DNA of 35,499 nucleotides from a virus. Location of the stretch: IMG/VR virus record IMGVR_UViG_3300046811_000282, positions 1-35,499 of that record. One strand, given 5' to 3'. How positions within the stretch are numbered: position 1 is the first letter of the stretch; every line of letters starts with the position of its first letter. The notes under the pieces are model-generated. The model did no database searches. It was not told where the DNA came from and saw only the letters and a list, made by a program, of their open reading frames with translations. Of this stretch, positions 2,559-16,339 are shown piece by piece. The translations under genes and the position numbers were made by a program.

Positions 2559-4025
2559 ATGGGACTCTTCGGACGTCTCACCGCGCCACTCCAGCGAGCG
2601 AGCGCCGGTGTCCCCAGCTTCGGCATGATCCCGCCGTTGGGGTCGATCCAGTCGGCTTCGGGCCTTCTGGTCAGCCAGGCGACGGCGATGACTGTCTCCT
2701 CGGTCAACCGGGCCGTGACGGTGCGCTCGAACGATGTCGCCCGGTGTGAACCGTCAATTTACGAGACGGCCGAGGACGGCACCCGCACGAAGATCGACCC
2801 CGAGGACCACGCGGTCGCAAAGCTGCTGACGCGGCCCAACCGGGTCCAGACCTGGTTCGAGTTCGCCCGCGACCTCTGGGTCGCCTACCTCCTGCGCGGC
2901 AACGCCTATGCCGCAATATTGCGCGACGGTCGGGGAAACCCGACGGAGCTGATCTGGATCAACCCCGACGCGGTGATGATCCTTGAGGCTGCCGACGGCA
3001 ACTGGTTCTACAACGTCAACCGGATCGGCCTTTTCCAGGTCGCTATGCTGCGCTCCCACCCGGTCGCGATCCCCGCCGAGGACATGCTCCATATCCGGGG
3101 CATGTCGTTCAACATGCTGGTCGGCGCCTCGACGATCGGGCTCGCCCGCGACGCGATCGGGTTGGCGATGGGCCAGTCGCAGCAGCAAAGCCGATGGGTC
3201 GGTAACGGCGCGCGGCCCTCGGTCGTCCTAGAGGCCCCCTCGCTCCTGAGCGACGAGGCGGCCATGCGCCTCAAGAGCAGCTGGGAAGAATTCTCGGCCG
3301 GGATCCAGAATGTCGGGCGTACCGCGGTGCTCGAACAGGGCATCACCGCCAAGGCATTGCAGCTGACCTCCGTAGACCTCCAGTTCATCGACCAGTGCAA
3401 CCTGACGGTGCAGGACATCGCGCGGTTCTTCGGGGTGCCGACCCGGAAGCTGATGCAGCAGGACACCTCGCGCGGCTCGACGATCATCCAGGAAGACCAG
3501 AGCTACATCAATGAGACCGTGTCGCCCGACCTTGAAATGTTCGAGCAGAAGATCGCGCAGACCTTTGGTCTCACCGAAGAGGGGCTCGGCATTGACATCG
3601 ACGAAAGCCCGCTCCTGCGCGCCGACCCGCTGACCCGATACAACATCGGCCGGATCGGCATCCTCTCGGGGATGATCAGCCCCAATGAATGGCGCCGCGG
3701 CGAACGCCTGCCGCCGGCGCCTGGCGGGGATGAAATCCGGGCACCGGTCAACCTCGCGGCCTTGGGGTCCGACATGACCGGCGAGGCGGCTGACGCGGCC
3801 GGACGACCGGCGGCGGGGCAGATGCCAAAGCCCGGGGTGCCGACCGACGGATCGGACGTCGCCCAGGAGGGGGCGCACGAGCCCGAACTCACGCGGGGAG
3901 CGACGATCAACGTAGCGGTCGATGCCCGGCGTGCCGCAACGACAAAACGCCGAGCCGTGCTGTCGCGCAACGAGGACGGCACGGTCGCCTTCGACATAAC
4001 CGAAACCGAGGAGGAGGCCGCGTGA
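2559..4025 (+). CDS. Portal protein (HK97 family)
   Basis: Forms the dodecameric ring at the unique capsid vertex through which DNA enters and leaves. The 488-residue product shows the usual portal layout. Near the N-terminus is VSSVNRAVTVRSNDVA, then the RPN...W..F...LW...LLRGNAYA block (about residues 92-120) and an ILxAxDGxWFYNV stem region. The VQDIARFFGVPTRKL and GSTIIQEDQSYINETVSPDLEMFE signatures follow (about 288-330). The last 90 residues are Pro/Gly/Ala-rich and poorly conserved, which is normal. The ATG start is preceded by a weak ribosome site, so translation probably depends on coupling to the small upstream gene. The 3' end overlaps the next gene at GTGA. Confidence 0.95.
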   Translation: MGLFGRLTAPLQRASAGVPSFGMIPPLGSIQSASGLLVSQATAMTVSSVNRAVTVRSNDVARCEPSIYETAEDGTRTKIDPEDHAVAKLLTRPNRVQTWFEFARDLWVAYLLRGNAYAAILRDGRGNPTELIWINPDAVMILEAADGNWFYNVNRIGLFQVAMLRSHPVAIPAEDMLHIRGMSFNMLVGASTIGLARDAIGLAMGQSQQQSRWVGNGARPSVVLEAPSLLSDEAAMRLKSSWEEFSAGIQNVGRTAVLEQGITAKALQLTSVDLQFIDQCNLTVQDIARFFGVPTRKLMQQDTSRGSTIIQEDQSYINETVSPDLEMFEQKIAQTFGLTEEGLGIDIDESPLLRADPLTRYNIGRIGILSGMISPNEWRRGERLPPAPGGDEIRAPVNLAALGSDMTGEAADAAGRPAAGQMPKPGVPTDGSDVAQEGAHEPELTRGATINVAVDARRAATTKRRAVLSRNEDGTVAFDITETEEEAA

Positions 4026-4405
4026 GATTTGCCCTGTCGGCTCGCGCGGAGCATGCCCTTCTCGGAGCAATCGCGGAGAGCATCCGCGACGGCACATTGC
4101 GGCTCTTCAATGGGGAGCCGCCGGGCAGCGCAAACGAGGTGACGACGCAAGAGCCTTTGGCGGCTTTGAGCTTTACGCGCGTCGCGGTCGCTGGCGGCCA
4201 GGTGTCGGCCGATATCGAACAGGAGATCGCGGCCGCGAGCGGCCAGGCCTCATGGGCGAGGGTTTCCGACCGCGAGGGCAACCCGATCTTCGATTGCGAC
4301 GTGGGTGGAGACCGGGAAGGCGCCGTGGTCACGCTCAACACGACGCAGATCAGGAAGGGCGGTCCGGTGACGATCCGCTCTTTCTCGGTGGGGTTGCGCC
4401 GTTGA
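4022..4405 (+). CDS. Probable virion structural protein, 127 residues
   Basis: Starts at GTG inside the portal stop (GTGA) behind a strong purine-rich site (GAGGAGGAGG, about 4009-4018). The N-terminal third (LLGAIAESIRDGTLRLFNGEPPGSANE) resembles small phage proteins that read as 'xxLRLYxGxxPAxxdxx' followed by a target residue pattern. The C-terminal half is beta-rich and ends with TIRSFSVGLRR. Such proteins are usually found among head or fibre genes and are thought to be structural. I do not recognise a named family with certainty. It directly precedes, and overlaps by 4 bases, the GT9 glycosyltransferase, so the two are probably co-translated. Confidence 0.65.
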   Translation: MRFALSARAEHALLGAIAESIRDGTLRLFNGEPPGSANEVTTQEPLAALSFTRVAVAGGQVSADIEQEIAAASGQASWARVSDREGNPIFDCDVGGDREGAVVTLNTTQIRKGGPVTIRSFSVGLRR

Positions 4406-5592
4406 GTTGGGCATGCATTTCAAGATATGGCGGGGTCGGCGACAACCTGATCGCGTCATCCGTGCTGGCCCCGCTTCGCACGAAATACGGGCGCGTCGAG
4501 GTCATCACCCAGTGGCCGCAGCATGTTGTCTTCGAGAACAACCCGCACATCGACAAGCTGTCGGTCCACAAGCCCGGCGATATCCCGGGCGAGACCTTGG
4601 AGGCCTGGGCCCGGTGGCATCGGGTCCGGGCGAAGGAATACGACTTCTTTGCCAACCTGTCGCACACCGTCGAGGTGTTGAAGGCGTTTCTTCCGGCACA
4701 GACGCAATTCGATTGGCCGGTCGCCTGGCGCCGCGAGTATTGCGCGGGCAGCTACATTGAGGCGGTTGCCAAAGTCTGCGGGGTCGATCCGGCCGATTGC
4801 GAACCGAGGTTTTTCCCGACTGAGGAAGAGCACGCAAAGGCCAAGGCCACTTTCGGCGAACAGATCGGCAAGCGCCCGGTCATCGGCTGGGTCCTGTCGG
4901 GTTCTCGGGTCGACAAGATTCATCCGGCGGGAACTCTTATTGTCGCGCGTCTGATCGCGGAACTTGGCGCGCAGGTCGTGATGTTCGGAGCGCCGGGGCG
5001 GGACTATGACATGGCCGTGCGCATCCAGGAGCACGTCAAGCGGCAGAACGGCACGACCAATGGCCTCCATTCGATGTGCGACAGTTTTCAGCCGGATATG
5101 ACGTTCGAGAACCAGAAGTTTCCGATTCGCCGCATCCTGACGCAACTTCGATATTGCGACCTGGTGATCAGCCCGGATACCGGACCCGCCTGGGCCGTGG
5201 CGATGGAGGACGTGCCGAAGATCATCCTGGTGAGCCACGCCAGCGCCGAAAACATCACCGGCGGCTGGCGGAACACCGTGACACTGCATGCCGACCGGCA
5301 TCGGGTCCCGTGCTGGCCCTGCCATCAGCTCCATGACACGCTCGATACCTGCACCCCGGACGAGACCAAGCAGGCCGCGGCGTGCATCTCGTCGATCTCG
5401 GTCGCGTCGATTATCGAAGAAGCGGCTAAAATACTAGCGCGGGCGGATGTCCATGCGTCTCATCATCAACGACTCGCTGCCGATCAAAGGGGCGCGACCA
5501 ATGGAAGTCAGGGAACTCAAAGACGCACTCGCGGCGTTCAACCCGTCGGGAATGGTATCGGTGGCGATTCCCTCTCTGGGGCAGCCACATGA
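4402..5592 (+). CDS. GT9-family (heptosyltransferase-like) glycosyltransferase
   Basis: GT-B-fold glycosyltransferase related to ADP-heptose:LPS heptosyltransferases, which transfer a nucleotide-activated sugar. The N-terminus has the family-type GGVGDNLIASSVLAPL (residues 10-25, similar to the 'GDxxxxxPxL' opening of GT9). The C-terminal half has IGWVLSGSR and the nucleotide-sugar-binding segment DLVISPDTGPAWAVA (Asp259-Thr260-Gly261), then a hydrophobic strand. The TTG start overlaps the previous stop (TTGA) and follows GGTGGGG. The frame runs 92 bases into the next gene, and the last 45 or so residues look like low-quality out-of-frame sequence, so the functional protein probably ends near residue 350. 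Sugar and acceptor (virion protein or host glycan) are unknown. Its place among head genes is unusual. Confidence 0.88.
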   Translation: MSWACISRYGGVGDNLIASSVLAPLRTKYGRVEVITQWPQHVVFENNPHIDKLSVHKPGDIPGETLEAWARWHRVRAKEYDFFANLSHTVEVLKAFLPAQTQFDWPVAWRREYCAGSYIEAVAKVCGVDPADCEPRFFPTEEEHAKAKATFGEQIGKRPVIGWVLSGSRVDKIHPAGTLIVARLIAELGAQVVMFGAPGRDYDMAVRIQEHVKRQNGTTNGLHSMCDSFQPDMTFENQKFPIRRILTQLRYCDLVISPDTGPAWAVAMEDVPKIILVSHASAENITGGWRNTVTLHADRHRVPCWPCHQLHDTLDTCTPDETKQAAACISSISVASIIEEAAKILARADVHASHHQRLAADQRGATNGSQGTQRRTRGVQPVGNGIGGDSLSGAAT

Positions 5593-5977
5593 GGTGCGGT
5601 CGATCCACCTCGTCGGACACCTCGACCACCCCGGCGAGGTCAAGAACGACCCGGATCATCCCGGAGCTCTCGACATCGTCTGCGATTCCTGGGATGCGCC
5701 GACACTGGGCAGGCCGGCACCGAAAATCGCCGCGCTACTGAAGATGATCGAGCCCTATCCGGACGGAATGCACGTTCGCGTCGCGGCCCCGGTGGTTCAC
5801 GACAGCATGTCGCACCGGATGCTCGATATCGTGATGATCGGCCACGCGGTCGGCACCGCGTCCGGGGTCCAGCTGGTCTGCGAAAACTGGGACAATCCCC
5901 ACCAGGTCATCAAGGAAATTCCCGAGATGGCGGCTAAGCGGCTGGCTGAGGCTGCCACGGCGCAAGAGGGAGCGTAG
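5501..5977 (+). CDS. Unknown protein with an internal duplication, 158 residues
   Basis: No family recognised. The protein contains two copies of a similar module. Residues about 15-68 contain MVSVAIP, VRSIHLVGH and LDIVCDSWDAP. Residues about 85-140 contain HVRVAAP, MLDIVMIGH and VQLVCENWDNP. Each copy has two beta strands, an aromatic 'C-D/E-x-W-D-x-P' end and a helical tail, suggesting a tandem domain duplication. The ATG at 5501 is preferred because AAAGGGG stands 8-9 bases upstream. An upstream in-frame ATG at 5447 would add 18 residues but has a poor site. It overlaps the 3' end of the glycosyltransferase and is followed 3 bases later by a fibre-type protein, so it may be a virion or assembly protein. 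Confidence 0.7.
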   Translation: MEVRELKDALAAFNPSGMVSVAIPSLGQPHEVRSIHLVGHLDHPGEVKNDPDHPGALDIVCDSWDAPTLGRPAPKIAALLKMIEPYPDGMHVRVAAPVVHDSMSHRMLDIVMIGHAVGTASGVQLVCENWDNPHQVIKEIPEMAAKRLAEAATAQEGA

Positions 5978-5980
5978 GCC

Positions 5981-6382
5981 ATGGCAAATATGGGCACTTA
6001 CGCCGAGAACTTCCTTCTTGCCTATTTGCTCCTCGGCGCGACGGCAACGCGCCCGGCCGCCTGGGGCATCGGGCTCTCGCTTGGTTCGCCGACATCCGTT
6101 TCCGGCAGCGAGATCGCGTCGGGCACGGGCATCGTGCGATCGAGCGGGCAATTCGTGTCGGTCAACGCCAATACCTTCAGCAACAGCGTCGCCAATACCT
6201 ATGGCCCGGTCAATGCCGCCGGTAGCTATAGCGGGATTGTGATCATGGATTCGCTGCCCGCCAGCTACACGGCAGATCAAGGTCATTTGTTGATGGGCGG
6301 ATTACTCGCTACAGCACGAACGGTCGGATCCGGAGATTCACTTGTGCTCGCTGTGGGTGGTCTCACCGTCTCGTTGTCGTAA
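5981..6382 (+). CDS. Phage fibre/decoration-type protein, copy A
   Basis: 133-residue beta-rich protein of a type common in phage tail-fibre and head-decoration loci. The pattern is 'LL.G.TAxxxPAxWxxGLSLGSP...GSEIASGtGiVRssgqf...N.fsNSvAnt.GP....GsySGIvIMDs......GhLLMGGLLat.RTVgSGDSLvlavGgLtVsLs'. The matching N-terminal ENFLLAYLLLGATATRPAAW and the C-terminal DSLVLAVGGLTVSLS are clear. It is paralogous to the 124-residue protein at 7197-7571, with the FkbM methyltransferase gene between them. It probably forms part of a capsid- or tail-attached appendage. The Ser/Thr-rich surface would be a plausible target for the nearby sugar enzymes, but that is inference. Confidence 0.75.
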   Translation: MANMGTYAENFLLAYLLLGATATRPAAWGIGLSLGSPTSVSGSEIASGTGIVRSSGQFVSVNANTFSNSVANTYGPVNAAGSYSGIVIMDSLPASYTADQGHLLMGGLLATARTVGSGDSLVLAVGGLTVSLS

Positions 6383-6385
6383 GCG

Positions 6386-7192
6386 ATGTCCGTCAAGGTC
6401 GCCAACTGCCGCCATGGGTCACAAGTCTATCTCGATTCGGATATCTATTTCGGTCCGCTGATCGAGCGGTGCGGCGAGTACAACGAGGGAGAAGTCGATC
6501 TTTTCCGCCATCTGATCGGCGAGGGCAGCGTGGTGATCGATGCGGGCGCGAATATCGGCTGCCATACGGTACCGCTCGGGAAGATCGTCGGGCCAACGGG
6601 CATGGTGTTGGCCTTCGAGCCGCAGCGGCCGATTTATTACGCGCTTTGCGGAACACTGGCGCTCAACGAGCTTTGGCACGTCACCGCCTATCCCGTGGCC
6701 CTCGGCTCTGAGCGGGGAACAACGAAAGTGGCCGCCATCAACTATTCGAAGCCGGCCAATTATGGCGGGGCTTCGATCGGCAACGAACTGCACGGGCATG
6801 ATGTCCCCGTCGTCCGGCTGGATGATTTCGAGCTGCCGTCGCTCCGATTTATCAAAGCCGACGTCGAGGGTCACGAAACGGAATTGCTAATGGGCGCTCG
6901 AGAGACGATCCGCCGGCATCGGCCGATCCTCTACGTAGAGAACGATCGGATCGAGAACTCCGACCGGCTGATAGACACGATGCTCGGTCTTGAATACCGA
7001 CTTTATCTGCACGCGCCGCCGCTGTTCAGTCCGAACAACTTCAGGGGATGCGACAAGAACCTGTTCCCCAATGTCGTGTCGGTTATGCTTCTGGGTATTC
7101 CAGCCGAAGCATCAACTTCTTTCTCGATCCACGGCATGCGGCCGATCGCCCGGCCGGAAGACATGGTGAAATTCGGCCATCTCGTGATTTAG
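6386..7192 (+). CDS. FkbM-family SAM-dependent methyltransferase
   Basis: Class I S-adenosylmethionine methyltransferase of the FkbM type, a family that mostly O-methylates sugars or related hydroxyls. The SAM-binding motif I is VVIDAGANIGCHT (residues 49-61). The acidic end of strand 2 is AFEPQ (Glu78). The FkbM signature RLDDFELPSLRFIKADVEGHE spans 144-164 with Asp159, Glu161 and His163, followed by LLMGARETIRRHRPILYVE. All elements of an active enzyme are present and the 268-residue length is normal. It starts 4 bases after fibre-type copy A and ends 4 bases before copy B. Together with the GT9 and the two-domain glycosyltransferase it suggests making or methylating a glycan, perhaps on the virion. 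Confidence 0.92.
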   Translation: MSVKVANCRHGSQVYLDSDIYFGPLIERCGEYNEGEVDLFRHLIGEGSVVIDAGANIGCHTVPLGKIVGPTGMVLAFEPQRPIYYALCGTLALNELWHVTAYPVALGSERGTTKVAAINYSKPANYGGASIGNELHGHDVPVVRLDDFELPSLRFIKADVEGHETELLMGARETIRRHRPILYVENDRIENSDRLIDTMLGLEYRLYLHAPPLFSPNNFRGCDKNLFPNVVSVMLLGIPAEASTSFSIHGMRPIARPEDMVKFGHLVI

Positions 7193-7196
7193 GCCG

Positions 7197-7571
7197 ATGT
7201 CCGCGGGTTCCTTCGCCCAGAACCTCCTCCTCCAATATGGGCTCATCGGCGCTACGGCGACGAGGGTGACAGCCTGGAGCGTCGGGCTCTCCCTGGGATC
7301 GCCCCAGGAAGGGACACTGAGCGAGATCGCGGCCGGTTCCGGGTATGTGAGGCAGCCGATCGGGTTTGCTTCGAGCGTCGCCAACACGTTCACGAATTCG
7401 GCCGCGGTCAGTTTTGCGGCGTTCAGCTCCAATGCGACCGTCTCCGGGATCTTCGTCGTAAACAACGCCGGGAGCCTTTTGCTTTACGGCACGCTGTCCC
7501 CGGCGACGGCAATAGCGCGCGGCAGCATCGGGGTCATCGCTTCGGGGGCACTCAAGGTGGCATTGAACTGA
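7197..7571 (+). CDS. Phage fibre/decoration-type protein, copy B
   Basis: 124-residue paralogue of the protein at 5981-6382. Both open with a FAQNLLLQYGLIGATATRVTAW-like stretch, continue with GLSLGSP, a Ser-Glu-Ile-Ala-x-Gly-Ser-Gly-Tyr-x-Arg segment and an Asn/Ser-rich strand, and finish with a 'LLLYGTLSPATAIARGSIG...GALKVALN' tail. The family is common in phage fibre and structural loci. Its ATG lies 4 bases after the methyltransferase stop (TAG), and the next gene begins 1 base after its own stop, so it is part of one operon. The repeated order of enzyme followed by fibre-type protein suggests that this block was built by duplication. Confidence 0.75.
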   Translation: MSAGSFAQNLLLQYGLIGATATRVTAWSVGLSLGSPQEGTLSEIAAGSGYVRQPIGFASSVANTFTNSAAVSFAAFSSNATVSGIFVVNNAGSLLLYGTLSPATAIARGSIGVIASGALKVALN

Positions 7572-7572
7572 G

Positions 7573-9564
7573 ATGGCAGCAGCAAATTTCGTCGCGACGC
7601 TGACGGTCGTCGGGGGCGAGACCTCGAAAACGACTACTGTCGAAGCAGCGCGCGCTGTCCTGGCGCCCGCTGGCGCGATGGCGGCGCCACTGCTGCTCAT
7701 CGATGTTCAGAGCCGGGCACAATTTGCCGGCGCGGGGGCCATGACCTCCACGCCTTTAGCCATCGAGATGATCGTCGATGCTCTACAAACGAACAAGATC
7801 GACAACAACTCGATGCAGGGTGCGGTCGCCGGGTCTCCGGGGACAATGCCGACGCATTGGTCGGTTAATAATAGTCCAGGACTGACGCAGACAATATCGT
7901 TGAGCACGGTCAACGGTGTCGACGTAATTTCGCTCCGATTCAACGGGACGCCTACTTCTACCGGGGCGGTCCAACCGATCTTCATGTTGCCGGCGGGCGC
8001 TCTTGCGAGTTTTGGGCAAGACTGGGATCTTTCAGCCTATCTAGCTATAATTGCGGGTAGCACGACAAACGTTACTTCTGTTAGGCTGAGTTACAACGAA
8101 CAACCTCTTGGCGGCGGGTTTCTGGCCTTCCACAATGGACCCGATCTAACCTCAATTTTGACCTCGACGCTGACGCGATATTCCTATAGTGCGACTAATA
8201 CCCAGGGCGCTACTGGAAGTGTCCGTCCAGTTTTTACTTTCAGTGTGACGATCGGCCAGCCGGTAGACATCACGTTTTCTATCGGGTGGCCGCAATTAGA
8301 GCTTGGCACGGCCGCGACTGCCGCCATCCGCACCACGGGTGCCGCCTCGGATGGTATGGCGCCTATGTTCCTGATGACGGCCGGCGTTCTACCGGAACAG
8401 TTCTTAGGCACCACCCTTGCTGGTGGCGGGGCCATCACAGCGGACGTCATCCCCGAGCAGTTCATTTCGGTCAGTCTCGCGGGTGCGGGATCAATAGCGG
8501 CCGGCCTGCGGGCGACCGAGCCGGTCCTCGGCGCCTTTGCGGGCGCGGGGGCCATCACAGCGGACGTCATCCCCGAGCAGTTCATTTCGGTCAGTCTCGC
8601 GGGTGCGGGATCGATAGCGGCCGGCCTGCGGGCGGCCGACGCAGTCACGGTCACCTTCGCCGCGGCCGGGTCTCTCGGCGGCGGAACGTTGACGAGAGAA
8701 CAGGTCCTCGGCGCCTTTGTCGGCGCGGGTGCCATTACCGCCCCGGATATTCTGCCGCAGCAGTTTGTCACCAACGTCCTGGCTGGTGTGGGGTCGATGG
8801 CCGCCGCGCCCGAATCCGTGGATGTCGTCGTAAGCGCGTTGAACAGCGCGGGCTCGATCGCCGCCGCGGCAGGATCCGTGGGCGCCGCCATAAGCCTTTT
8901 GAGCGGTGCAGGCGCACTTGCCGCCGATTTCCTGCCGCAGCAATTCGCAAGCGCGGTCCTTGCTGGTTCGGGGTTGCTCTCGGCGAACTTAGCAGAGAAG
9001 GAACTCACGGCCGCGGCGTTCGTAGGTTTGGCGGCCTTGAGCGCCGATTTTGCCGAAAAGGATCTGGTAGCAGCGGCACTTGTGGGATCCGCGACGCTCG
9101 GCACCGATTTTGCGGCGGCTGGAACGGGGCGGGCCGTCGCAGCCGCAATGGCCGGCGCGGGTGCTCTTCGGGCGGATTTAGGCGTCATTTCGGCCGCGGC
9201 AGCCGGGGAACCCTCGATCCTCGGCGGTCATTCAGCCCGCAGGCGGCGCCGCGCCGTACGGGGCAACCTGGCCCTCTACCTGATGGCGTTCGGCGCGGAA
9301 GCCTCGGGCGAGGTCGAGGAGCCGAGAGAGGGCCGCGCGGCGGCTCTCTTCGGGTTCGCGGCTCGGGCGCGCGGAGCAGTCGGCGCAGCTGGGGCGCTCG
9401 AATGCCCGCTGCCGGAATTCAGTGTCGCGGTGCGCGGGGAAATCGCGCCCTGCGGCGAGATGCGAAGTTTCCTGGGTGTCGAAGCCCGGGCGGTCGGCAG
9501 GTTCGACCATTTCAGCGACGACGAAATTTCCGCGCTCTGGCCATGGCTGCTGCTGGCCGCTTAG
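7573..9564 (+). CDS. Large spike-like virion protein with CBM-type domain and 20-residue repeats
   Basis: 663-residue probable capsid spike or fibre. Residues 92-258 look like the carbohydrate-binding-type domain found in phage head-spike and fibre proteins. They begin with PTHWSV, end with IGWPQLELGTAATAAIRTTGAA (a hallmark QLE.G..AT...TTGA end) and are beta-rich in between. From about residue 271 to 536 there are a dozen or more 20-residue repeats of the form P-x-Q-F-x-x-x-x-L-A-G-A-G-S-I-A-A-x-x, likely stacking as paired short beta strands. The C-terminal 120 residues contain an Arg-rich patch (ARRRRRAVRG) and an acidic end. DNA for the binding domain has low GC (43% in 8041-8100) against 73% in 9241-9300. 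The gene lies 1 base after copy B and 8 bases before the protease. Confidence 0.75.
   Translation: MAAANFVATLTVVGGETSKTTTVEAARAVLAPAGAMAAPLLLIDVQSRAQFAGAGAMTSTPLAIEMIVDALQTNKIDNNSMQGAVAGSPGTMPTHWSVNNSPGLTQTISLSTVNGVDVISLRFNGTPTSTGAVQPIFMLPAGALASFGQDWDLSAYLAIIAGSTTNVTSVRLSYNEQPLGGGFLAFHNGPDLTSILTSTLTRYSYSATNTQGATGSVRPVFTFSVTIGQPVDITFSIGWPQLELGTAATAAIRTTGAASDGMAPMFLMTAGVLPEQFLGTTLAGGGAITADVIPEQFISVSLAGAGSIAAGLRATEPVLGAFAGAGAITADVIPEQFISVSLAGAGSIAAGLRAADAVTVTFAAAGSLGGGTLTREQVLGAFVGAGAITAPDILPQQFVTNVLAGVGSMAAAPESVDVVVSALNSAGSIAAAAGSVGAAISLLSGAGALAADFLPQQFASAVLAGSGLLSANLAEKELTAAAFVGLAALSADFAEKDLVAAALVGSATLGTDFAAAGTGRAVAAAMAGAGALRADLGVISAAAAGEPSILGGHSARRRRRAVRGNLALYLMAFGAEASGEVEEPREGRAAALFGFAARARGAVGAAGALECPLPEFSVAVRGEIAPCGEMRSFLGVEARAVGRFDHFSDDEISALWPWLLLAA
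8428..8634 (+). repeat. Near-identical 87-bp direct repeat inside the spike gene
   Basis: Positions 8428-8514 and 8548-8634 are identical at 86 of 87 bases (difference at 8493/8613) and exactly 120 bases apart, that is two 20-codon repeat units. A weaker copy of the following segment occurs 180 bases apart (8521-8549 and 8701-8729). The near identity means a recent duplication, and the copies can recombine to gain or lose repeats in frame. Confidence 0.9.
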
Positions 9565-9572
9565 GGGGACGC

Positions 9573-11060
9573 ATGATCCGCACGATCTTCCCGGCGCAGG
9601 TTACCAGCCTCGGCGACGACGAGGTAGAGGTCGTCCTTTCGACCGGCCTCAAGGCGCGCGACGGTCACGTCCTCGTGCCCGAGGGCTGCGACCTCTCCGG
9701 CTACCGAAGCAACCCGATCGTCCTCTGGCAGCACTCGCCCGAAACCCCGGTCGGTCGCGCCTCGGAGATCCAGGTCAGCAACGACAAAATCATCGCGCGC
9801 ATCACCTTTGCGCCCCTGGGGGTGTCGCCCAAGGCCGACGAGGTGCGCGGATTGGTCAAGGCGAACGTGATCTCGGCCGTCTCGGTGGGTTTCGACCCGG
9901 TCGACGGCGAACCGCTCGACCCGAAGCGCCCCAGAGGCGGGCAGCGCTTCACCCGCTGGGAATTGCTGGAATGCAGTTTCGTCAGCGTCCCAGCCGACCC
10001 TGGCGCGATCGTCACGGCACGTGCGAACGGAGAAATCGACATGGCGGACTGGAAAGTCGGCGCGGCGCGCAACCTCCCGGTCGAGGACAGCGACGCCTGG
10101 GACGGCCCGGCGGCCGAGAAGTCGATCTTCGACCATGCCGGCGGCGACGAGTTCGACCCGGTGAAGGCTCGTGCGGGGTTCCTCGTCTACGACGCCGACG
10201 CGCCAAAGCTGCGCGGCTCCTACAAGCTGCCGATCGCGCACGTGGTTGACGGCGAACTGAAGGTGCCGAAGGGCGCCCTGCGCGCCGCGGCCTCGCGCCT
10301 CCCGCAGGCCGACATCGGCGACGCGAAGGACGAGGCGGAGAAGGTCCTCAAGGCCTACGAGAAAAAGGCCGGGATCGGTGATGATGCCGAGCGTGCCGTA
10401 AAACCGCGCCGGGCGCGCCGCGCGCCGCCGCCGGTGATCAGGCTGCGCGGCATGTCGGATCTTGGCCGGTTCGCCTATCTGCTCGATTGCCTCGCCGACC
10501 TCAAATGCTCAGCCGAGATCGAGGCGGCGCTTGAAGGCGACGAATCGCAGGTTCCGGCAATGATCGCCGCCGCGCTGCAGAGCGCCGGCACTGCGATGCT
10601 GGCGATGGCCGCCGAGGAGATCGCCGAGCTGATCGGCGGCGAAGAGGCCGACGACGACAGCGGCGAAGGCCTGGGCGACGACGACATGATGATGATCGTG
10701 GCCTCGACGACCCCGGCGCAGAAGCGGTTCCGCGTCGGGGCCGCTCGTGCAAGGGCGCTCCTCACCCGCAAGGGCAAGACCCTCTCGGCGGAGACCGCAC
10801 GCTGCCTGCGCTCGGCCCTCGACATGCACGACACGGCCATGGACCAGCATCGCTCGGCGATGCGGGCGCACCGCGCGGGGGCGCAATATATCCGCGACCT
10901 CATCGATCCCGAAGACGACACGGGAGACGAGAACGGCCAGGGCGCCGAAGGCGACAATTCGACAATCCAGAAGCCCAATGGCGTCGCCGAGGACGAAGGT
11001 TCGCGCAGCCTCGATTACCGCAAGCGCCAACTCGATGCGCTCCTCCTGGCAGGGGCGTAG
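9573..11060 (+). CDS. Prohead protease with long C-terminal scaffold-like extension
   Basis: 495 residues. Residues 1-150 match the caudoviral prohead protease (HK97 gp4-like, peptidase U35/S78). LWQHS (His54) and AVSVGF (Ser104) carry the likely catalytic His and Ser, and WELLECSFVSVPADPGA closes the domain. Residues about 160-265 form a domain often attached to such proteases (KARAGFLVYDADAPKLRGSYKLPIAHVVDG and an Ala-rich helix). The remaining 230 residues are acidic, helical and low-complexity (EEADDDSGEGLGDDD), as expected of a scaffold. The ATG has a strong site, AGGGGGA, 4-9 bases upstream. It is followed by the Dps and major capsid genes, so it probably supplies both protease and scaffold. 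An in-frame internal start at 10041 is noted separately. Confidence 0.9.
   Translation: MIRTIFPAQVTSLGDDEVEVVLSTGLKARDGHVLVPEGCDLSGYRSNPIVLWQHSPETPVGRASEIQVSNDKIIARITFAPLGVSPKADEVRGLVKANVISAVSVGFDPVDGEPLDPKRPRGGQRFTRWELLECSFVSVPADPGAIVTARANGEIDMADWKVGAARNLPVEDSDAWDGPAAEKSIFDHAGGDEFDPVKARAGFLVYDADAPKLRGSYKLPIAHVVDGELKVPKGALRAAASRLPQADIGDAKDEAEKVLKAYEKKAGIGDDAERAVKPRRARRAPPPVIRLRGMSDLGRFAYLLDCLADLKCSAEIEAALEGDESQVPAMIAAALQSAGTAMLAMAAEEIAELIGGEEADDDSGEGLGDDDMMMIVASTTPAQKRFRVGAARARALLTRKGKTLSAETARCLRSALDMHDTAMDQHRSAMRAHRAGAQYIRDLIDPEDDTGDENGQGAEGDNSTIQKPNGVAEDEGSRSLDYRKRQLDALLLAGA
10041..11060 (+). CDS. Possible internal in-frame start giving a scaffold-only product
   Basis: Within the protease gene, ATG at 10041 (residue 157, directly after the catalytic domain) is preceded by GGAGA with 7-8 bases spacing. 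It would produce a 339-residue protein lacking the protease domain, in the way lambda C makes Nu3. The site is real in the sequence; its use is a guess. Confidence 0.35.
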   Translation: MADWKVGAARNLPVEDSDAWDGPAAEKSIFDHAGGDEFDPVKARAGFLVYDADAPKLRGSYKLPIAHVVDGELKVPKGALRAAASRLPQADIGDAKDEAEKVLKAYEKKAGIGDDAERAVKPRRARRAPPPVIRLRGMSDLGRFAYLLDCLADLKCSAEIEAALEGDESQVPAMIAAALQSAGTAMLAMAAEEIAELIGGEEADDDSGEGLGDDDMMMIVASTTPAQKRFRVGAARARALLTRKGKTLSAETARCLRSALDMHDTAMDQHRSAMRAHRAGAQYIRDLIDPEDDTGDENGQGAEGDNSTIQKPNGVAEDEGSRSLDYRKRQLDALLLAGA

Positions 11061-11065
11061 TTTCA

Positions 11066-11581
11066 ATGGCGAGCCCAGCAGCCGCGCAACTCCGCCTGGC
11101 CTTGGCGGATACCTGGGCCTTCTACTTCAAGTCGCATAGCTTCCACTGGAACGTCCAAGGGCTGCTGTTCCGCCAGTTGCATGAGTTTTTCGGCGACCTC
11201 TATTCAGATGCCAACGGCGCGGTCGATGACCTCGCCGAGCATCTTCGGGCCATCGGCGAATTGGCGCCGTCATCGCTGGTCGAGATCGATCAGCTTTCGC
11301 GCATCACGTTTGCGCCCTCGCCACCCGACGCGATGCGGATGGTCGCAACGCTCAGCGCGGACAATGAGCTTGTCCTCGGCAGTCTTGGTGCCGCGCAGGC
11401 TGCCGCAGCAGCTTCCGGCGAGGATGGCCTCGCGAATTTCCTGCAAGACCGGCTCGACCGGCACAAGAAATGGGGCTGGATGCTCCGAGCCACGCTCGGA
11501 ACCGTCGAGGGTGAAGTTCTACGCGAAGCCGATTATAGACGGCGCGAGGTGGAGGCCTTAGCGCTCGCAGCGCCCATCTGA
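11066..11581 (+). CDS. Dps-family ferritin (DNA-protection protein)
   Basis: 171-residue four-helix Dps/ferritin-like protein. Family proteins form 12-mer cages that bind iron with peroxide, often bind DNA and protect it from oxidative damage. The intersubunit iron ligands are conserved: His27 (SFHWNV), His39 (RQLHE), Asp54 and Glu58 (VDDLAEH). The spacings of 12, 15 and 4 match Listeria Dps His31/His43/Asp58/Glu62. The usual Asp after the second His (4 residues on) is Gly43, with Asp44 next to it. The C-terminal helix LQDRLDRHKKWGWMLRATLG fits the family. The ATG is 5 bases after the protease stop and GGGG lies about 10 bases upstream. Its position between protease and capsid genes suggests a head-associated role, not seen in standard HK97-type clusters. 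Confidence 0.88.
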   Translation: MASPAAAQLRLALADTWAFYFKSHSFHWNVQGLLFRQLHEFFGDLYSDANGAVDDLAEHLRAIGELAPSSLVEIDQLSRITFAPSPPDAMRMVATLSADNELVLGSLGAAQAAAAASGEDGLANFLQDRLDRHKKWGWMLRATLGTVEGEVLREADYRRREVEALALAAPI

Positions 11582-11583
11582 AA

Positions 11584-11650
11584 ATCCCCACGGGGATCGC
11601 CCAAATAAGTCGCCGCTTGGGCAACGGCTTCCCGCAGCGTCGTGAGACGC
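11584..11650. promoter_or_regulatory. Three hairpins in the leader of the capsid gene
   Basis: The 97 bases between Dps and the major capsid gene contain three inverted repeats. ATCCCC/GGGGAT lies at 11584-11597. GCCCAA/TTGGGC lies at about 11600-11623. GCGTC-GTGA-GACGC at 11637-11650 has a GNRA-type tetraloop. No T-run follows any of them. Such a structured leader before the most abundant virion protein could stabilise the transcript or set translation. No promoter is recognised. Confidence 0.4.
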
Positions 11651-11678
11651 CGCCTTCCTGATCATTGGAGCCTACTTG

Positions 11679-13118
11679 ATGGAAAAGGTCAGCGACCTGA
11701 TCAAGCGGCGCGCGACCGCTTACGATGCTTTCGCGGCAATCGCCAACCTCGAAACCCTGGATGACCAGCAGAGGCGGGATTATCCGACGCTGAAGGACGC
11801 CGTCACCGACCTCGACGCGCAAATCGTCCGGGCACGGGAGGCGCAGGAGTTGTCGGCCTCCACCGCTCGCCCGGTGGCCGGGCAGGAAAACGCCTACCGC
11901 GCGCCAGCCTCGCCGGAGAAAGACCCCTACATCAGCGACGAGGCCGCCAAGGCGCGCGGCATCGGCACGAGCAAGGGTCTCGTCGTCGGCGGCATGATGA
12001 GGATGATCGGCCGGGCCGCGAGCGAGTTCACCTCGCCCTCGAAGATCGCGGAAGCGGTCTATGGTGCCAATCACCCGATCACCCGCGCGCTGATCACCGG
12101 CACAGGCCCGGCAGGCGGCTTTATCGTGCCGCCCGATTACATCGCGGAGATCATCGAGCTTCTGCGACCGCTGGCGCAGGTCCGCGCCGCCGGCCCCCGC
12201 ACGATCCCGATGCCCAGGGGGACGATGAGGCTCCCCGGCCAGGCGAGCGCGGCGACGGCGTCCTACGGGGCGGAAAACACCGCTATCGCGCAGTCGCAGC
12301 AGACGCTCCGCACGATCGTCGCGACCTACAAGAAGCTGACCGCCTTGGTGCCCGTGTCCAATGACATGATGCGGTACGCCGACCCGGCGGTTGACGCCTT
12401 CGTGCGCGACGACCTGGTGAAGGTCATCGCGCTTCGCGAGGATCTGGCATTCCTCCTCGGCGACGGTACGCAGGACACCCCGCGGGGTTATCTCAGCTTT
12501 GCCAACGGCTGGGTCGGGGCGAACGCTGGAACGATCGGTGTTTGGTCGACGACCGCCAACTCGGTCTTCGCGGTCAACGGCACCGATCCGGCGAACACGA
12601 CCGGCGGCAACTTCATTACCGCAAACCAGACCTATACGCTGGCCACCGTCGCGGCCGAACTAGGCGGGGCCGTCAACCGGCTGGATACGGCAAACGTGCC
12701 GGACACGAAGCGCGTCTGGTTCATGCACCCGCGCAGCTTCAACTACCTGAACAACGTCCAGAACAGCCTCGGCGTCTACGTCTACCGCGACGAATTGACC
12801 GACGGGACGCTGCTCGGCTACCCGTTCCGGAAGACCACGCAGATCGGCAACGGCTACTGGAACGCCAACGGCAGCAACAAGGACCTCTCGTTCATCTTCC
12901 TCGCGGAGATGGACGAATCGATGATCCTCGATTCGATGCAGCTCGAACTCGCGGTCAGCCGCGAGGGCACCTACATCGATTCGACCGGTGCCACGATCTC
13001 GGCCTTCCAGAGCGACCAGACGATCATCCGGGCAATCGCCGAGCACGACTTCCAGATGCGCCACGACCAGGCGGTCGCGGTCATCCAGGCCGTCAGGTAC
13101 GCCCCGGCGATCTCGTAG
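11679..13118 (+). CDS. Major capsid protein (HK97 fold)
   Basis: 479 residues forming the shell. The N-terminal 100 residues are a coiled-coil delta-type region (MEKVSDLIKRRATAYDAF... with an acidic heptad run) expected to be removed by the protease. The capsid domain begins near GIGTSKGLVVGGM and includes ALITGTGPAGGFIVPPDYIAEIIELL, a PRTIPMPRGTMRLP strand, a 'YKKLTALVPVSNDMMRYADP' spine segment and a C-terminal FQSDQTIIRAIAEHDFQMRH block. These are typical of HK97-fold capsid proteins. ATG at 11679 is preferred over the TTG at 11676, since GGAG stands 8 bases before it. A structured leader precedes the gene and a likely terminator follows it. Confidence 0.95.
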   Translation: MEKVSDLIKRRATAYDAFAAIANLETLDDQQRRDYPTLKDAVTDLDAQIVRAREAQELSASTARPVAGQENAYRAPASPEKDPYISDEAAKARGIGTSKGLVVGGMMRMIGRAASEFTSPSKIAEAVYGANHPITRALITGTGPAGGFIVPPDYIAEIIELLRPLAQVRAAGPRTIPMPRGTMRLPGQASAATASYGAENTAIAQSQQTLRTIVATYKKLTALVPVSNDMMRYADPAVDAFVRDDLVKVIALREDLAFLLGDGTQDTPRGYLSFANGWVGANAGTIGVWSTTANSVFAVNGTDPANTTGGNFITANQTYTLATVAAELGGAVNRLDTANVPDTKRVWFMHPRSFNYLNNVQNSLGVYVYRDELTDGTLLGYPFRKTTQIGNGYWNANGSNKDLSFIFLAEMDESMILDSMQLELAVSREGTYIDSTGATISAFQSDQTIIRAIAEHDFQMRHDQAVAVIQAVRYAPAIS

Positions 13119-13136
13119 GACGCCGCGCCCCTCCCG

Positions 13137-13173
13137 GGGCCGGCGCCGTCCGGCCCATCGTTTCCTTATTTTT
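13137..13173 (+). terminator. Rho-independent terminator-like structure after the capsid gene
   Basis: A 7-bp GC stem (GGGCCGG, 13137-13143; CCGGCCC, 13150-13156) with a 6-base loop is followed after four bases by the T-rich tract TTTCCTTATTTTT (13161-13173). It lies 19 bases after the capsid stop and before the decoration gene. It probably reduces read-through so that the capsid protein is made in excess; downstream genes continue on the same strand, so termination is likely partial. Confidence 0.55.
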
Positions 13174-13185
13174 CGGAGAACTCCG
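13174..13185 (+). promoter_or_regulatory. Palindrome that sequesters the ribosome-binding site
   Basis: CGGAG-AA-CTCCG is a perfect palindrome ending directly before the ATG at 13186. The GGAG Shine-Dalgarno is one arm. A hairpin here would hide the ribosome site. A very similar arrangement stands at 16327-16338. Confidence 0.45.
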
Positions 13186-13668
13186 ATGGACATGGTCATT
13201 CAGAAAGACATCGGCTCGGTCGTCGAAAACCGGGTCGCCTCAACCCCTCTGGTGTGGACCGCCGCAGGAACCGGCGACAACACGACCCTTACCGGCATCT
13301 CGATCGACCGGGAGGCCGTGCTTTCAGGGGGAGCGGGTTCGCCCGCGCTCTCGGCGAAGTTCACCGCGCTCTTCGGCACGACGCTGGCGAGCGGCGCGAC
13401 GCTGAACATCGCCTGGACGATCCTCGATTCGGCCGACAACAGCACCTTCGCCACCTACGCGAGCGCCGCCGGGGTCACTGTCGCGACCGGAGTTTCGGGG
13501 GGCGGTGTCGTCAACTCGCACAGCTCGATCAACGTCAACCTCTCGTCGGCAAAGCGGTACATCCGGGCCGATATCGTGCCGAACCTCTCGGCCAGCGGTA
13601 CCGACACGGCGGTAGCTATCATCGTCGCGACCCTGGCCGGGTTCGACCGGCTGCCCGCCCCGACCTGA
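13186..13668 (+). CDS. Probable capsid decoration/minor virion protein, 160 residues
   Basis: Beta-rich protein with alternating Ala/Ser/Thr/Val segments, no charged clusters and no signal peptide, directly downstream of the capsid gene. That is the usual site of head decoration proteins. It starts MDMVIQKDIGSVVENRVAS; a second ATG at 13192 would be two codons later. The middle carries AAGTGDNTTLTGISIDREAV and LNIAWTILDSADNSTFATYASAAG, and the end SAKRYIRADIVPNLSASGTDTAV. This is typical of small virion proteins of the jelly-roll or Ig sort. The family is not certain. The RBS is inside a palindrome. Confidence 0.7.
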   Translation: MDMVIQKDIGSVVENRVASTPLVWTAAGTGDNTTLTGISIDREAVLSGGAGSPALSAKFTALFGTTLASGATLNIAWTILDSADNSTFATYASAAGVTVATGVSGGGVVNSHSSINVNLSSAKRYIRADIVPNLSASGTDTAVAIIVATLAGFDRLPAPT

Positions 13669-13687
13669 TCGGAGGACCCCTGCGCCC

Positions 13688-15145
13688 GTGTTCATCCTGC
13701 CTACCATGAACCGCCCGGAGCGGCTCCAACAGGTGCTCGACGCCTGCGTCGAGACCGGTATGACCTCGCCCGGGCTGGTTCTGATCAACGGCGCGGACCA
13801 GCGCGAGAAATACGCCGGCGTGCGGTATCCCTCGAACTGGTCCTCCCGGGTGTTGCCCAAAAATCTCGGCTTCAACGGGGCTTGCCAGGAATTCTTCGAA
13901 GATGTCCAGGCATCCCCGCGACCTCCCCTCTCTTCCTGGCTTGGGTGCATGGCCGACGACGCTATCCCCTCGACGCCGGGATGGGACCGACGGCTCCTCG
14001 CCGAACTGGAGGGCCGCATCAAGATCGTCTCGGCAAACGACTGCTGGCAGAGCGATGCCGATCCGCTGCGATCCCGTCTTTCTCCGACCAGCGTCTTCGA
14101 TCTCGGGCTCCTCGAGGCGATGGGGTTCTGGTTTCTCCCCGGGCTCTGGTCCTTCTACGCCGATAATATCATCGAGGACATCGGCCGGCGCTTCGGGTGC
14201 TGGAAGATCCTGATGGATGTCAAGGCCGAGCACAGCCACGTCCTCAACGGCAAGGCGCCCAATGACGCGACCTATGCCGCCAGCTATGCCTCGAAGAGTT
14301 CGATCGAGGCCGACGGCAGGCGGCTTCAGGAATGGGCGAAGGAGGACCGCCCGCACGTCTTCGCGCGGATCGCCGAATACTTGTGCCAGTTCACCCCGGA
14401 AGCCCCGGAGGATGCCGACGCAGCCGAGGGATTGCGGCGGCTGGAGCGCGCCCGCTCGCGCTCGGTGATGATCTGCACGCCGGTTCACCGCGACACGGCT
14501 TGGCAGTACACACGATCTCTCGTTGACACGAAGACGACGCTCGATCGCCTCGGCGTGCGCAACCGGACGCTCTTTCTCGCCGGCTGCTCGAACCTCCCCA
14601 AGGCGAGAAACGAACTGGCGGCATGGTTTCTCGCGTCGGACTTCACCGACCTTCTTTATGTCGACGCCGACATGAGTTGGGAGCCTAACGGCGTCGCCCG
14701 GCTCCTCGCGTCCGACAAGGAGGTGATCGGCGCCGTCGGCCGGCGTAAGACCGAGGAGACGCAATGGTGCGCGCGACTCCTCCCGTCCTCGAACCACAAG
14801 ATCAACCAGGACGCCATGGGCGCCGTCGAAGTTCATTCGATCGGCACCGGGTTCCTGAAGGTCGCCCGCGAGGCGCTGGACCAGATCGTTGCGGCCCGGC
14901 CCGACCTCAGAATCGACCTCCCCGGCCTCCCCGAAGAGCCGCGCTCTCGGTATCACCGCTTCTTCCGGTTTGGCGAGGACGACGGCGGCGAGGATTACCA
15001 GTTTTGCGAGCTCTGGCGTTCGGTCGGCGGGAAGGTCTGGGCCGACCCGGAGATCGAGCTCGGCCACTGCGGCGAGACCGAGTTCAGGGGCAAGTTCGCC
15101 GATGCCCTCACACCGGCACCGGCGCTTCAGGAAGCGGCCGATTAA
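13688..15145 (+). CDS. Two-domain GT-A glycosyltransferase
   Basis: 485 residues with two GT-A/GT2-like domains. Domain 1 (about 1-230) opens FILPTMNRPERLQQVLDAC, has an acidic ADDA motif (Asp90-Asp91) near a hydrophobic strand and ends with VKAEHSHVLNG. Domain 2 (about 265-470) has VMICTPVHRDTAWQYTRSL, the metal-binding LLYVDADMSW (Asp326 and Asp328), IGTGFLKV, and GEDYQFCELWRSVGG (Glu435-Asp436). The two-domain form suggests a polymerising or two-step sugar transferase. GTG is the only in-frame start; GGAGG lies 12 bases upstream, a long spacing. It lies between head genes. The glycan substrate is unknown, but the same block of the genome has a GT9 and an FkbM enzyme. Confidence 0.88.
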   Translation: MFILPTMNRPERLQQVLDACVETGMTSPGLVLINGADQREKYAGVRYPSNWSSRVLPKNLGFNGACQEFFEDVQASPRPPLSSWLGCMADDAIPSTPGWDRRLLAELEGRIKIVSANDCWQSDADPLRSRLSPTSVFDLGLLEAMGFWFLPGLWSFYADNIIEDIGRRFGCWKILMDVKAEHSHVLNGKAPNDATYAASYASKSSIEADGRRLQEWAKEDRPHVFARIAEYLCQFTPEAPEDADAAEGLRRLERARSRSVMICTPVHRDTAWQYTRSLVDTKTTLDRLGVRNRTLFLAGCSNLPKARNELAAWFLASDFTDLLYVDADMSWEPNGVARLLASDKEVIGAVGRRKTEETQWCARLLPSSNHKINQDAMGAVEVHSIGTGFLKVAREALDQIVAARPDLRIDLPGLPEEPRSRYHRFFRFGEDDGGEDYQFCELWRSVGGKVWADPEIELGHCGETEFRGKFADALTPAPALQEAAD

Positions 15146-15163
15146 CCCCAGAGGCCAAAATCA

Positions 15164-15376
15164 ATGCGGCTCGTGACCTTCACCAAAGACATGGCGCCGC
15201 ACAAGGCGGGGGAAACCCGCGTCCTCCCGGACGTCGTCGCCGCGCGTCTCGTTGAAGAGGACACCGCCAGAGATTCGGGCCCGTTCCCGGCGAAGGCGAA
15301 GACGCATGAAGACGCAGAACCGGTCGAGACGCGGCCGGGGAAGCGGTACATGACCCGAGGGGTTCACGATGTTTGA
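15164..15376 (+). CDS. Small phage protein of unknown role, 70 residues
   Basis: MRLVTFTKDMAPHKAGETRVLPDVVAARL... resembles short proteins found downstream of capsid genes in many phages. These begin 'MxVxFTKDxxPYxAGExxxxPxxxAxxLVxxGxA', with a basic, Pro-rich tail (here RPGKRYMTRGVHDV). AGAGG lies about 17 bases upstream, so the RBS is weak, and it overlaps the next gene by 8 bases. Function unknown; a small head or assembly protein is plausible. Confidence 0.65.
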   Translation: MRLVTFTKDMAPHKAGETRVLPDVVAARLVEEDTARDSGPFPAKAKTHEDAEPVETRPGKRYMTRGVHDV

Positions 15377-15839
15377 GCGCCTGCGAGCATTGATCCACGC
15401 GCGCGCCACCGAAATGGCGGAGGCCGACGGCGAACCCCTTGGGACGCTCTATCTCGACGCGGCCGTGCACGAGCTTTACGCATTGCTGCCGCAGGCGAAG
15501 ACGGTTCTGAGAGAAACACACGCCGCATCACCCTCTACCGCCGGCGCCGAACACCAAAGGGCGTTGCGGGGGCTCCTGGCGGAACACCGCGGTCGACAGC
15601 CCGCGATCGAGGAGATGCTCGCGGCGCTCGACGGAATCGGCGCCCTGGAGGACCAGGATTTCGCGGCCGGCGAGAAGATCCCGATCAGGCCGGCGCTCTA
15701 CGATGCGCTGGAAGCGGAAATCGCCGAACTCGGCATGGTGGCCGGTGTGTTCGAGGTCGAGAAGCCGCGGCAGATCACCCTCGACGTAGCGGGTGCGGTC
15801 GTGACGGTGCAGGTGGCCCCGACCGCGCCTGGACCATAG
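15369..15839 (+). CDS. Unknown phage protein, 156 residues
   Basis: No family recognised. The N-terminal two thirds are helical (MFERLRALIHARATEMAEA, a Leu-rich HELYALLPQAK, QRALRGLLAEH) and the C-terminal end is a beta strand, QITLDVAGAVVTVQVAPTAPGP. That end resembles the last residues of the protein at 15932-16297 (DITADVAGATITTQDAPTAAGP), suggesting a shared C-terminal module. It starts inside the preceding gene and ends just before the hairpin at 15858-15885. Confidence 0.65.
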   Translation: MFERLRALIHARATEMAEADGEPLGTLYLDAAVHELYALLPQAKTVLRETHAASPSTAGAEHQRALRGLLAEHRGRQPAIEEMLAALDGIGALEDQDFAAGEKIPIRPALYDALEAEIAELGMVAGVFEVEKPRQITLDVAGAVVTVQVAPTAPGP

Positions 15840-15857
15840 CCGCCATTTCCCCTTTCT

Positions 15858-15885
15858 GCCCCGCATTGGATGACCCCTGCGGGGC
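15858..15885 (+). other. Hairpin between two small virion genes
   Basis: GCCCCGC (15858-15864) and GCGGGGC (15879-15885) form a 7-bp stem with a 14-base loop. No T-run follows. It stands in the 92-base gap before the gene at 15932 and may be a processing or stability element. Confidence 0.35.
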
Positions 15886-15931
15886 TTGCGGGCTGACTGA
15901 AATCCCCACACAAAACCCGGAGCAAGAAAAC

Positions 15932-16297: not shown

Positions 16298-16326
16298 ACC
16301 GGCTCCGACCTGTAAACGCATTATCC

Positions 16327-16338: not shown

Positions 16339-16339
16339 C

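What the first reader, a model, noticed from the sequence alone, without database searches (positions are those of the whole stretch)
4402..15145. Virion-associated glycosylation and methylation cassette interleaved with head genes
GT9 glycosyltransferase (4402-5592), FkbM methyltransferase (6386-7192) and a two-domain GT-A enzyme (13688-15145) lie among portal, protease, capsid and decoration genes, each next to a fibre- or decoration-type protein. Sugar-binding-type domains in the spike (7573) and lectin (18409) genes complete the picture. The simplest hypothesis is that the virion (capsid decoration or spike) carries a phage-made, possibly methylated glycan, or that these enzymes remodel host glycans during infection. 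The gene order is seen directly; the function is inference.
Basis: partly seen in the sequence, partly recalled or inferred. Interest (0 to 1): 0.75.

Follow-up and report, generated by a model that had tools for sequence, protein, structure and literature searches.

The report
Phage structural proteins with private glycosyltransferases
An uncultivated tailed phage carries sugar-attaching and sugar-methylating enzyme genes next to its capsid-decoration and fibre genes, and comparison with many relatives shows that these enzyme and virion-protein genes travel between phages as units, so the phage probably coats parts of its own particle with sugars that it adds itself.

Summary
They form two independent modules.

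Module 1 (4402-9564) is GT9, 5447, Gp80a, FkbM, Gp80b and a repeat fibre. It sits between portal and protease. None of 77 other loci with a related major capsid protein (MCP) has GT9, Gp80 or FkbM. L124 carries the same six genes in a backbone without detectable homologues of the window's head genes. Searching with Gp80 alone finds GT9 beside it in 13/16 non-redundant loci, and GT9 is always 5' (52:0). FkbM is fused to GT9 in 8 of 42 GT9 clusters, in both orders.

Module 2 is decoration protein 13186 plus GT-A 13688. Searching with the GT-A domain alone, 54/58 relatives of at least 40% identity lie in this head slot. GT-A presence needs 3 changes on the decoration-protein tree, against 14 on the MCP tree (at least 10 forced by supported branches), 13 portal, 15 protease, 16 head-tail adaptor and 19 next gene. 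The pair is exchanged as a unit.

Best reading: the enzymes glycosylate, and FkbM methylates glycans on, virion appendage and decoration proteins. The host-glycan alternative is weakened, not excluded; no chemistry was tested. Phage capsid glycosylation is known (Che8). The tight enzyme-acceptor pairing and the fibre cassette found no precedent in the papers searched.

The parts
4402..5592 (+). GT9-type (GT-B) glycosyltransferase, TTG start, 4-nt overlap with upstream gene; Cys4 motif C304-C307-C317-C328
   Evidence: PF01075; AF2 pLDDT 88 and PDB hits 3tov/WaaF/WaaC/TibC; D259-T260-G261 invariant in 14 relatives; Cys4 motif in 25/25
5447..5977 (+). hypothetical protein of the cassette, overlapping the GT9 3' end
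   Evidence: no family; 70% identical homologue at the same place in L124
5981..6382 (+). Gp80a, small fibre/appendage protein (PF23140)
   Evidence: PF23140 E=2e-13; PDB 8jou E=3.7e-12 with family profile A3
6386..7192 (+). FkbM-family SAM methyltransferase, between the two Gp80 paralogues
   Evidence: PF05050 2e-16, TIGR01444 6e-23; GANIG motif invariant
7197..7571 (+). Gp80b, paralogue of Gp80a
   Evidence: PF23140 E=3e-13
7573..9564 (+). Gly/Ala-repeat fibre or spike protein, end of the cassette
   Evidence: no Pfam family above cut-off; related repeat proteins follow Gp80 in several GT9 loci
13186..13668 (+). decoration-type protein (phrog_5707-like), presumed acceptor of GT-A
   Evidence: homologue directly after the MCP in relatives
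13688..15145 (+). two-domain GT-A glycosyltransferase (N: GT2-like; C: phrog_1574-like, DxD 326-328)
   Evidence: position after the decoration gene conserved; co-inherited with decoration gene
2559..4025 (+). portal (left of the cassette, with 4022-4405 between)
   Evidence: phrog_12 E=3e-92
9573..11060 (+). prohead protease S78 (right flank of the cassette)
   Evidence: PF04586
11676..13118 (+). HK97-type major capsid protein
   Evidence: phrog_10 E=6e-50

Best explanation
The phage glycosylates its own virion using two independent enzyme-acceptor modules. Module 2: the GT-A enzyme (13688) transfers sugar to the capsid decoration protein encoded just upstream (13186), probably adding a first sugar and extending it, since it has two GT-A domains. 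Module 1: GT9 (4402) transfers a sugar, possibly a heptose, to the Gp80-type fibre proteins (5981, 7197) and perhaps the repeat fibre (7573), and FkbM (6386) O-methylates that glycan. Donors come from the host pool; no sugar-nucleotide synthesis gene was recognised among the window genes examined. The likely benefit is altering adsorption, particle stability or recognition of the particle surface. Shown here: gene identity, intact catalytic motifs, conserved order, fusion, transfer of the cassette as a unit, co-inheritance with the structural gene. Inferred: acceptor identity, sugar identity, methylation of the glycan, benefit.
For: (1) GT-A presence or absence over 52 phages: 3 changes on the decoration-protein tree; 14 on the MCP tree (bootstrap 13-14, at least 10 forced by supported branches); portal 13, protease 15, head-tail adaptor 16, next gene downstream 19. 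(2) Search with the GT-A domain alone: 54/58 relatives of at least 40% identity have the decoration gene upstream; 0/22 of the more distant ones do. (3) Search with Gp80 alone: 13/16 non-redundant loci have GT9 within 2.5 kb; GT9 is 5' of Gp80 in 52/52 cases. (4) Of 42 GT9 clusters, 25 are next to Gp80, 27 next to or fused with FkbM, 14 both, 4 neither; 8 fused, in both orders. (5) L124 carries the six-gene cassette at 78/70/86/56/73/37% identity in another backbone; 0/77 MCP-relative loci carry it. (6) GT9 and Gp80 distances correlate (rho 0.45, 0/2000 permutations); FkbM correlates with neither. (7) Catalytic motifs are conserved.
Against: No chemistry. Linkage can reflect co-transfer of neighbours without enzyme-substrate contact. 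Distant GT-A homologues (26-34%) in T4-like phages lie beside the sliding clamp, not capsid genes, so the superfamily has other targets. About two thirds of FkbM loci lack both GT9 and Gp80 (54/80). GT9 folds match LPS heptosyltransferases better than the protein heptosyltransferase TibC. The Gp80 query was built from Gp80s already next to GT9.
Confidence: 0.68

Rival explanations
1. The enzymes remodel host surface glycans (LPS or capsule) during infection, for example to block superinfection or re-adsorption to debris, and sit among late genes only for expression timing.
For: The GT9 fold is closest to Veillonella GT9, WaaF and WaaC; weak TIGR02193 heptosyltransferase I match. Phage LPS-modifying genes are well known, e.g. 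epsilon15, as cited in PMC5537653.
Against: GT9 is bound to one fibre family in one order (52:0) across unrelated phages; GT-A follows the decoration-protein clade, not the phage lineage. One distant relative in 84,980 species genomes by pattern scan argues against recent capture of a host LPS gene.
Confidence: 0.15
2. Linked morons: the genes are co-transferred with neighbouring virion genes only because they are adjacent, and their substrates are unrelated to those proteins.
For: Neighbouring genes recombine together; the cassette has lower GC3 (0.69-0.80) than portal, protease and MCP (0.86-0.88), as for acquired DNA.
Against: The gene on the other side of GT-A (h15161) shows no such coupling (19 changes) and neither does the MCP, 67 nt from the decoration gene (13-14 changes). 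The three Module 1 families occur in varied spacings, fusions and backbones.
Confidence: 0.1
3. The GT-A enzyme modifies phage DNA, and placement after the decoration gene is incidental.
For: T4-like phages Cr30, DLP_6 and vB_OspM_OC keep distant homologues next to the sliding clamp.
Against: Within the at-least-40% clade the gene is essentially confined to the MCP-decoration slot. No base-hydroxylating gene was recognised in the window, although its early region is missing.
Confidence: 0.05

Closest known systems
Capsid glycosylation in mycobacteriophage Che8 and related cluster F1 phages (Freeman et al. 2023, described in PMC11256854)
   Same: Phage-encoded glycosyltransferases; glycans covalently attached to a virion protein
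   Different: There the acceptor is the major capsid protein, and in the F1 phage Maravista the glycosyltransferase genes lie near the 3' genome end; here each enzyme is next to, and co-inherited with, a decoration or fibre gene
PBCV-1 A064R and A061L (chlorovirus capsid N-glycan enzymes; PMC9614988)
   Same: Virus-encoded two GT domains plus a methyltransferase, one protein fusing GTs and methyltransferase, making an O-methylated capsid glycan
   Different: Virus of a eukaryotic alga; different GT families and domain order; acceptor is the MCP
TibC/BAHT protein heptosyltransferases (PMC4358343)
   Same: GT-B fold; four-cysteine cluster in the C-lobe (TibC C339/C342/C358/C370; here C304/C307/C317/C328); GT gene paired with an acceptor
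   Different: 13-15% identity in the structure match; shorter Cys spacing; beta-barrel and thumb not tested; acceptor here is presumed, not shown
Podophage GP4 fibre protein gp80 (PDB 8jou; Zheng et al. 2023, cited in PMC13243795)
   Same: PF23140 family; virion appendage
   Different: GP4 is a podophage with three types of tail fibre; here two paralogues lie in a siphophage-type head module beside glyco-enzymes; location in this virion unknown

Membership tests
CAZy GT9-type glycosyltransferase (Pfam PF01075) | Profile match above cut-off and GT-B fold | tested here: met
   23.5 bits against 22; Foldseek top hits GT9 3tov, WaaF, WaaC
CAZy GT9-type glycosyltransferase (Pfam PF01075) | Conserved donor-site residues | tested here: met
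   D259-T260-G261 and G10/G13/D14 invariant in 14 sequences
CAZy GT9-type glycosyltransferase (Pfam PF01075) | ADP-heptose as donor | not testable with these tools
   no assay
FkbM methyltransferase | PF05050/TIGR01444 match and SAM motif | tested here: met
   2e-16 and 6e-23; GANIG motif invariant
GP4 gp80 fibre family (PF23140) | Profile match above cut-off | tested here: met
   51.0 and 50.6 bits against 27; 8jou E=4e-12
Metal-dependent GT-A glycosyltransferase | DxD motif, ED catalytic motif, Rossmann-like GT-A fold | tested here: met
   D326, D328, E435, D436, H460 invariant in 39 sequences; fold hits LH3, K4CP, mimivirus R699, LARGE1, low TM for whole chain
BAHT/TibC protein heptosyltransferase | CxxC-C-C iron finger | tested here: inconclusive
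   Cys4 present in 25/25 members but with other spacing; metal binding untested; whether LPS heptosyltransferases share it was not tested
BAHT/TibC protein heptosyltransferase | N-terminal beta-barrel, beta-hairpin thumb and dodecamer | not tested
   only a single-chain model was made and it was not examined for these features
Virion-glycosylating phage (Che8 kind) | Glycan covalently attached to a virion protein | not testable with these tools
   needs virions and mass spectrometry
Virion-glycosylating phage (Che8 kind) | Phage-encoded glycosyltransferase | tested here: met
   three enzyme genes in the late region; GT genes linked to presumed acceptors

The most novel reading that the evidence does not exclude
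Soil phages carry private glycosyltransferase-acceptor pairs: each decoration or fibre protein type has its own dedicated enzyme and is exchanged with it as a unit (decoration+GT-A; Gp80+GT9 with or without FkbM), so capsid surface chemistry evolves by swapping modules. This would be a general way for phages to diversify the particle's sugar coat, with the methyltransferase as a freely exchanged finishing enzyme.
Probability: 0.5. Interest if true: 0.78.

Novelty: new variant of a known kind. Interest (0 to 1): 0.66.

Why it matters
As far as I know, protein glycosylation of phage particles has been shown for few phages, mainly of actinobacteria. Here a comparative test ties specific glycosyltransferases to specific virion proteins in a widespread group of uncultivated phages, naming enzyme and acceptor for direct bench tests. 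If right, it gives a simple rule (read the gene next to the decoration or fibre gene) for predicting virion glycosylation from sequence, new soluble protein glycosyltransferases and methyltransferases, and an explanation for many unexplained GT and FkbM genes in phage late operons. The slot after the decoration gene also holds radical-SAM, FkbM and other methyltransferase genes in relatives, suggesting a variable surface-chemistry locus.

Tried and rejected
Window DNA (1-20000) against 50,697 phage records: no match. GT9 and Gp80a by tblastn in the same records: none. Gp80 alignment A3 was too variable for a collection scan, so the narrower A4 was used. The first GTA_C profile was cut out of frame and gave false zeros; redone in frame. 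The idea that GT-A presence follows phage lineage was tested on five other gene trees and rejected. A sugar-binding domain in 7573: rejected at Pfam level. Tandem DNA repeats in 7573: none; the repetition is visible only in the protein. Ser/Thr content of the decoration protein with and without GT-A: no clear difference by eye; the listing only suggested that the subtypes differ, which led to the tree test. GT-A as a capsid-dedicated family everywhere: rejected, distant homologues lie in replication modules. No primary paper on GP4 gp80 or on Che8 glycosylation was held; both are cited second-hand.
Full report
What the window is. It is a 35,499-base IMG/VR virus record of 64.5% GC, without tRNA genes. 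It holds the late region of a siphovirus: terminase, portal, S78 protease, HK97 capsid protein, head-tail adaptor, major tail protein, tape measure and endolysin. No similar DNA was found for bases 1-20000 in 50,697 phage records. The best named capsid relatives are about 28-35% identical (Burkholderia, Komagataeibacter, Rhodobacter and other proteobacterial phages), so the host is unknown, probably a proteobacterium (inference).

The observation. The three enzyme genes are real and at the stated places. GT9 (4402-5592) passes the Pfam cut-off narrowly, but an alignment of 14 sequences shares its donor-site residues, and its predicted structure is confident and matches GT9 enzymes first. FkbM (6386-7192) is clear. 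The GT-A protein (13688-15145) has two domains, each resembling a different phage family. The C domain keeps DxD, ED and a histidine in all 39 sequences compared; the relative placement of the domains in the model is uncertain (pTM 0.57). The neighbours 5981 and 7197 are paralogues of fibre protein gp80 of phage GP4. The lectin-like domain in 18409 is real. A sugar-binding domain in 7573 was not found.

Two modules. Comparing 77 other loci with a related major capsid protein, none contains GT9, Gp80 or FkbM by these profiles, and in most of them the portal is followed almost directly by the protease. The stretch 4402-9564 is therefore read as an insertion. Its GC3 (0.69-0.80) is lower than that of portal, protease and capsid gene (0.86-0.88). 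Two relatives (L035, L077) carry other repeat or fibre-like genes at the same site, so the site seems to accept appendage genes. The GT-A gene belongs to the second module and its composition is close to the backbone.

Module 1: GT9, FkbM and Gp80. Searching IMG/VR with GT9 gave 24 loci, most with a Gp80 gene downstream although the surrounding head genes are unrelated. Searching with Gp80 alone gave 25 loci, 16 non-redundant, 13 of them with GT9 within 2.5 kb; the query was made from Gp80s already next to GT9, so this rate holds for that branch of the family only. GT9 is 5' of Gp80 in all 52 pairs, redundant loci included. FkbM is next to or fused with GT9 in 27 of 42 GT9 clusters. Eight clusters are single proteins with both domains, FkbM-GT9 (L011, L024, L025, L131, L154, L165, L210) and GT9-FkbM (L174 group). 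Fusion in both orders is a strong sign that the two activities act on one product (inference from the Rosetta-stone principle). L124 carries the whole six-gene cassette in a phage without detectable homologues of the window's head genes. GT9 and Gp80 distances correlate over 25 phages (rho 0.45, none of 2000 permutations as high), whereas FkbM correlates with neither over 14. GT9 and Gp80 thus look like the stable pair and FkbM a replaceable finishing enzyme. FkbM genes are also common in phages without GT9 or Gp80 (54 of 80 loci).

Module 2: decoration protein and GT-A. Of 59 capsid relatives with enough downstream sequence, all have the decoration gene and 26 a GT-A C-domain gene downstream of it (between it and the head-tail adaptor wherever the adaptor was found), typically 40-80 bases after the decoration gene; eight have the two-domain form. 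Searching with the GT-A domain alone, 54 of 58 relatives of at least 40% identity have this decoration gene upstream (of the other four, L249 begins inside the GT-A gene), while 0 of 22 more distant ones do. The critical test asked which gene's history the GT-A gene follows. Over 52 phages, presence or absence needs 3 changes on the decoration-protein tree (0 of 500 shuffles as low, mean 17.5) but 14 on the capsid tree with a careful search (bootstrap 13-14; well-supported branches alone force 10). Portal, protease, head-tail adaptor and the gene after GT-A need 13, 15, 16 and 19 (quick trees). In the window the capsid gene lies 67 nt and the GT-A gene 19 nt from the decoration gene, so closeness alone does not easily explain why only the GT-A follows it. 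Most economically, GT-A acts on the decoration protein. In relatives the same slot also contains radical SAM, FkbM and other methyltransferase genes.

Mechanism. I propose that GT-A glycosylates the decoration protein, and that GT9 glycosylates Gp80-type fibres with FkbM methylating the product. The order of steps, sugars and residues are inference. GT9 has four cysteines in a CxxC-C-C arrangement in all 25 members compared, similar to but spaced differently from the iron finger of TibC, a protein heptosyltransferase; this is a lead, not a membership claim. The donor is presumably a host nucleotide sugar.

Rivals. Host-glycan remodelling remains possible: GT9's fold is nearest to 3tov and LPS heptosyltransferases. 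It does not explain why GT9 tracks one fibre family or GT-A one decoration family. Simple hitchhiking does not explain the uncoupled gene immediately downstream. DNA modification has one point in favour, the replication-module location of distant GT-A homologues in T4-like phages; one uncultivated podovirus instead keeps a homologue shortly after its P22-type coat gene.

Comparison with the known. Phage-encoded capsid glycosylation has been reported for Che8 (as described in PMC11256854). PBCV-1 A064R fuses two glycosyltransferases and a methyltransferase for a methylated capsid glycan (PMC9614988), the nearest functional parallel to FkbM-GT9. I found no report of decoration-protein-GT-A pairs or of a Gp80-GT9-FkbM cassette in the papers searched; that library lacks most subscription journals. 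I therefore rate this a new variant of a known kind.

Limits. All evidence is comparative. Collection scans returned at most 80 loci each; ORF calls are mechanical; GP4 gp80 is known here through its Pfam name, PDB 8jou and a citing paper, and whether Gp80 sits on head, neck or tail in this phage is unknown.

Noticed in passing
11066-11581: A Dps/ferritin-like gene (PF00210 E=1e-19) lies between protease and major capsid gene. In the BLAST comparison it was found only in contigs nearly identical to the window, so it looks like a recent, rare addition; a virion-packaged Dps would be unusual.
   Followed up: partly
L034:12002-13737, L044:11016-11624, L067:3630-4493, L102:11914-12531: The slot between decoration gene and head-tail adaptor in relatives holds radical SAM, FkbM, Methyltransf_24, Methyltransf_23 and Methyltransf_11 genes: a variable modification locus.
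   Followed up: partly
5447-5592: GT9 and the next gene overlap by 146 nt; in several relatives GT9 and Gp80 overlap by about 110-130 nt instead. Unusually long overlaps, unexplained.
   Followed up: no
L035:4183-7747, L077:4508-7633: The portal-protease junction in two relatives carries other repeat or fibre-like genes, suggesting an insertion site for appendage cassettes.
   Followed up: partly
L214, L215, L217: Distant GT-A homologues sit close to the sliding clamp and clamp-loader genes in three T4-like phages of Caulobacter, Stenotrophomonas and Ochrobactrum; some of these phages also encode FkbM. Function unknown.
   Followed up: no
L112:10001-10963: The only GT9-family relative found in the GTDB genome scan is in a Thaumarchaeota MAG contig (29% identity), possibly misbinned or an archaeal virus.
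   Followed up: no
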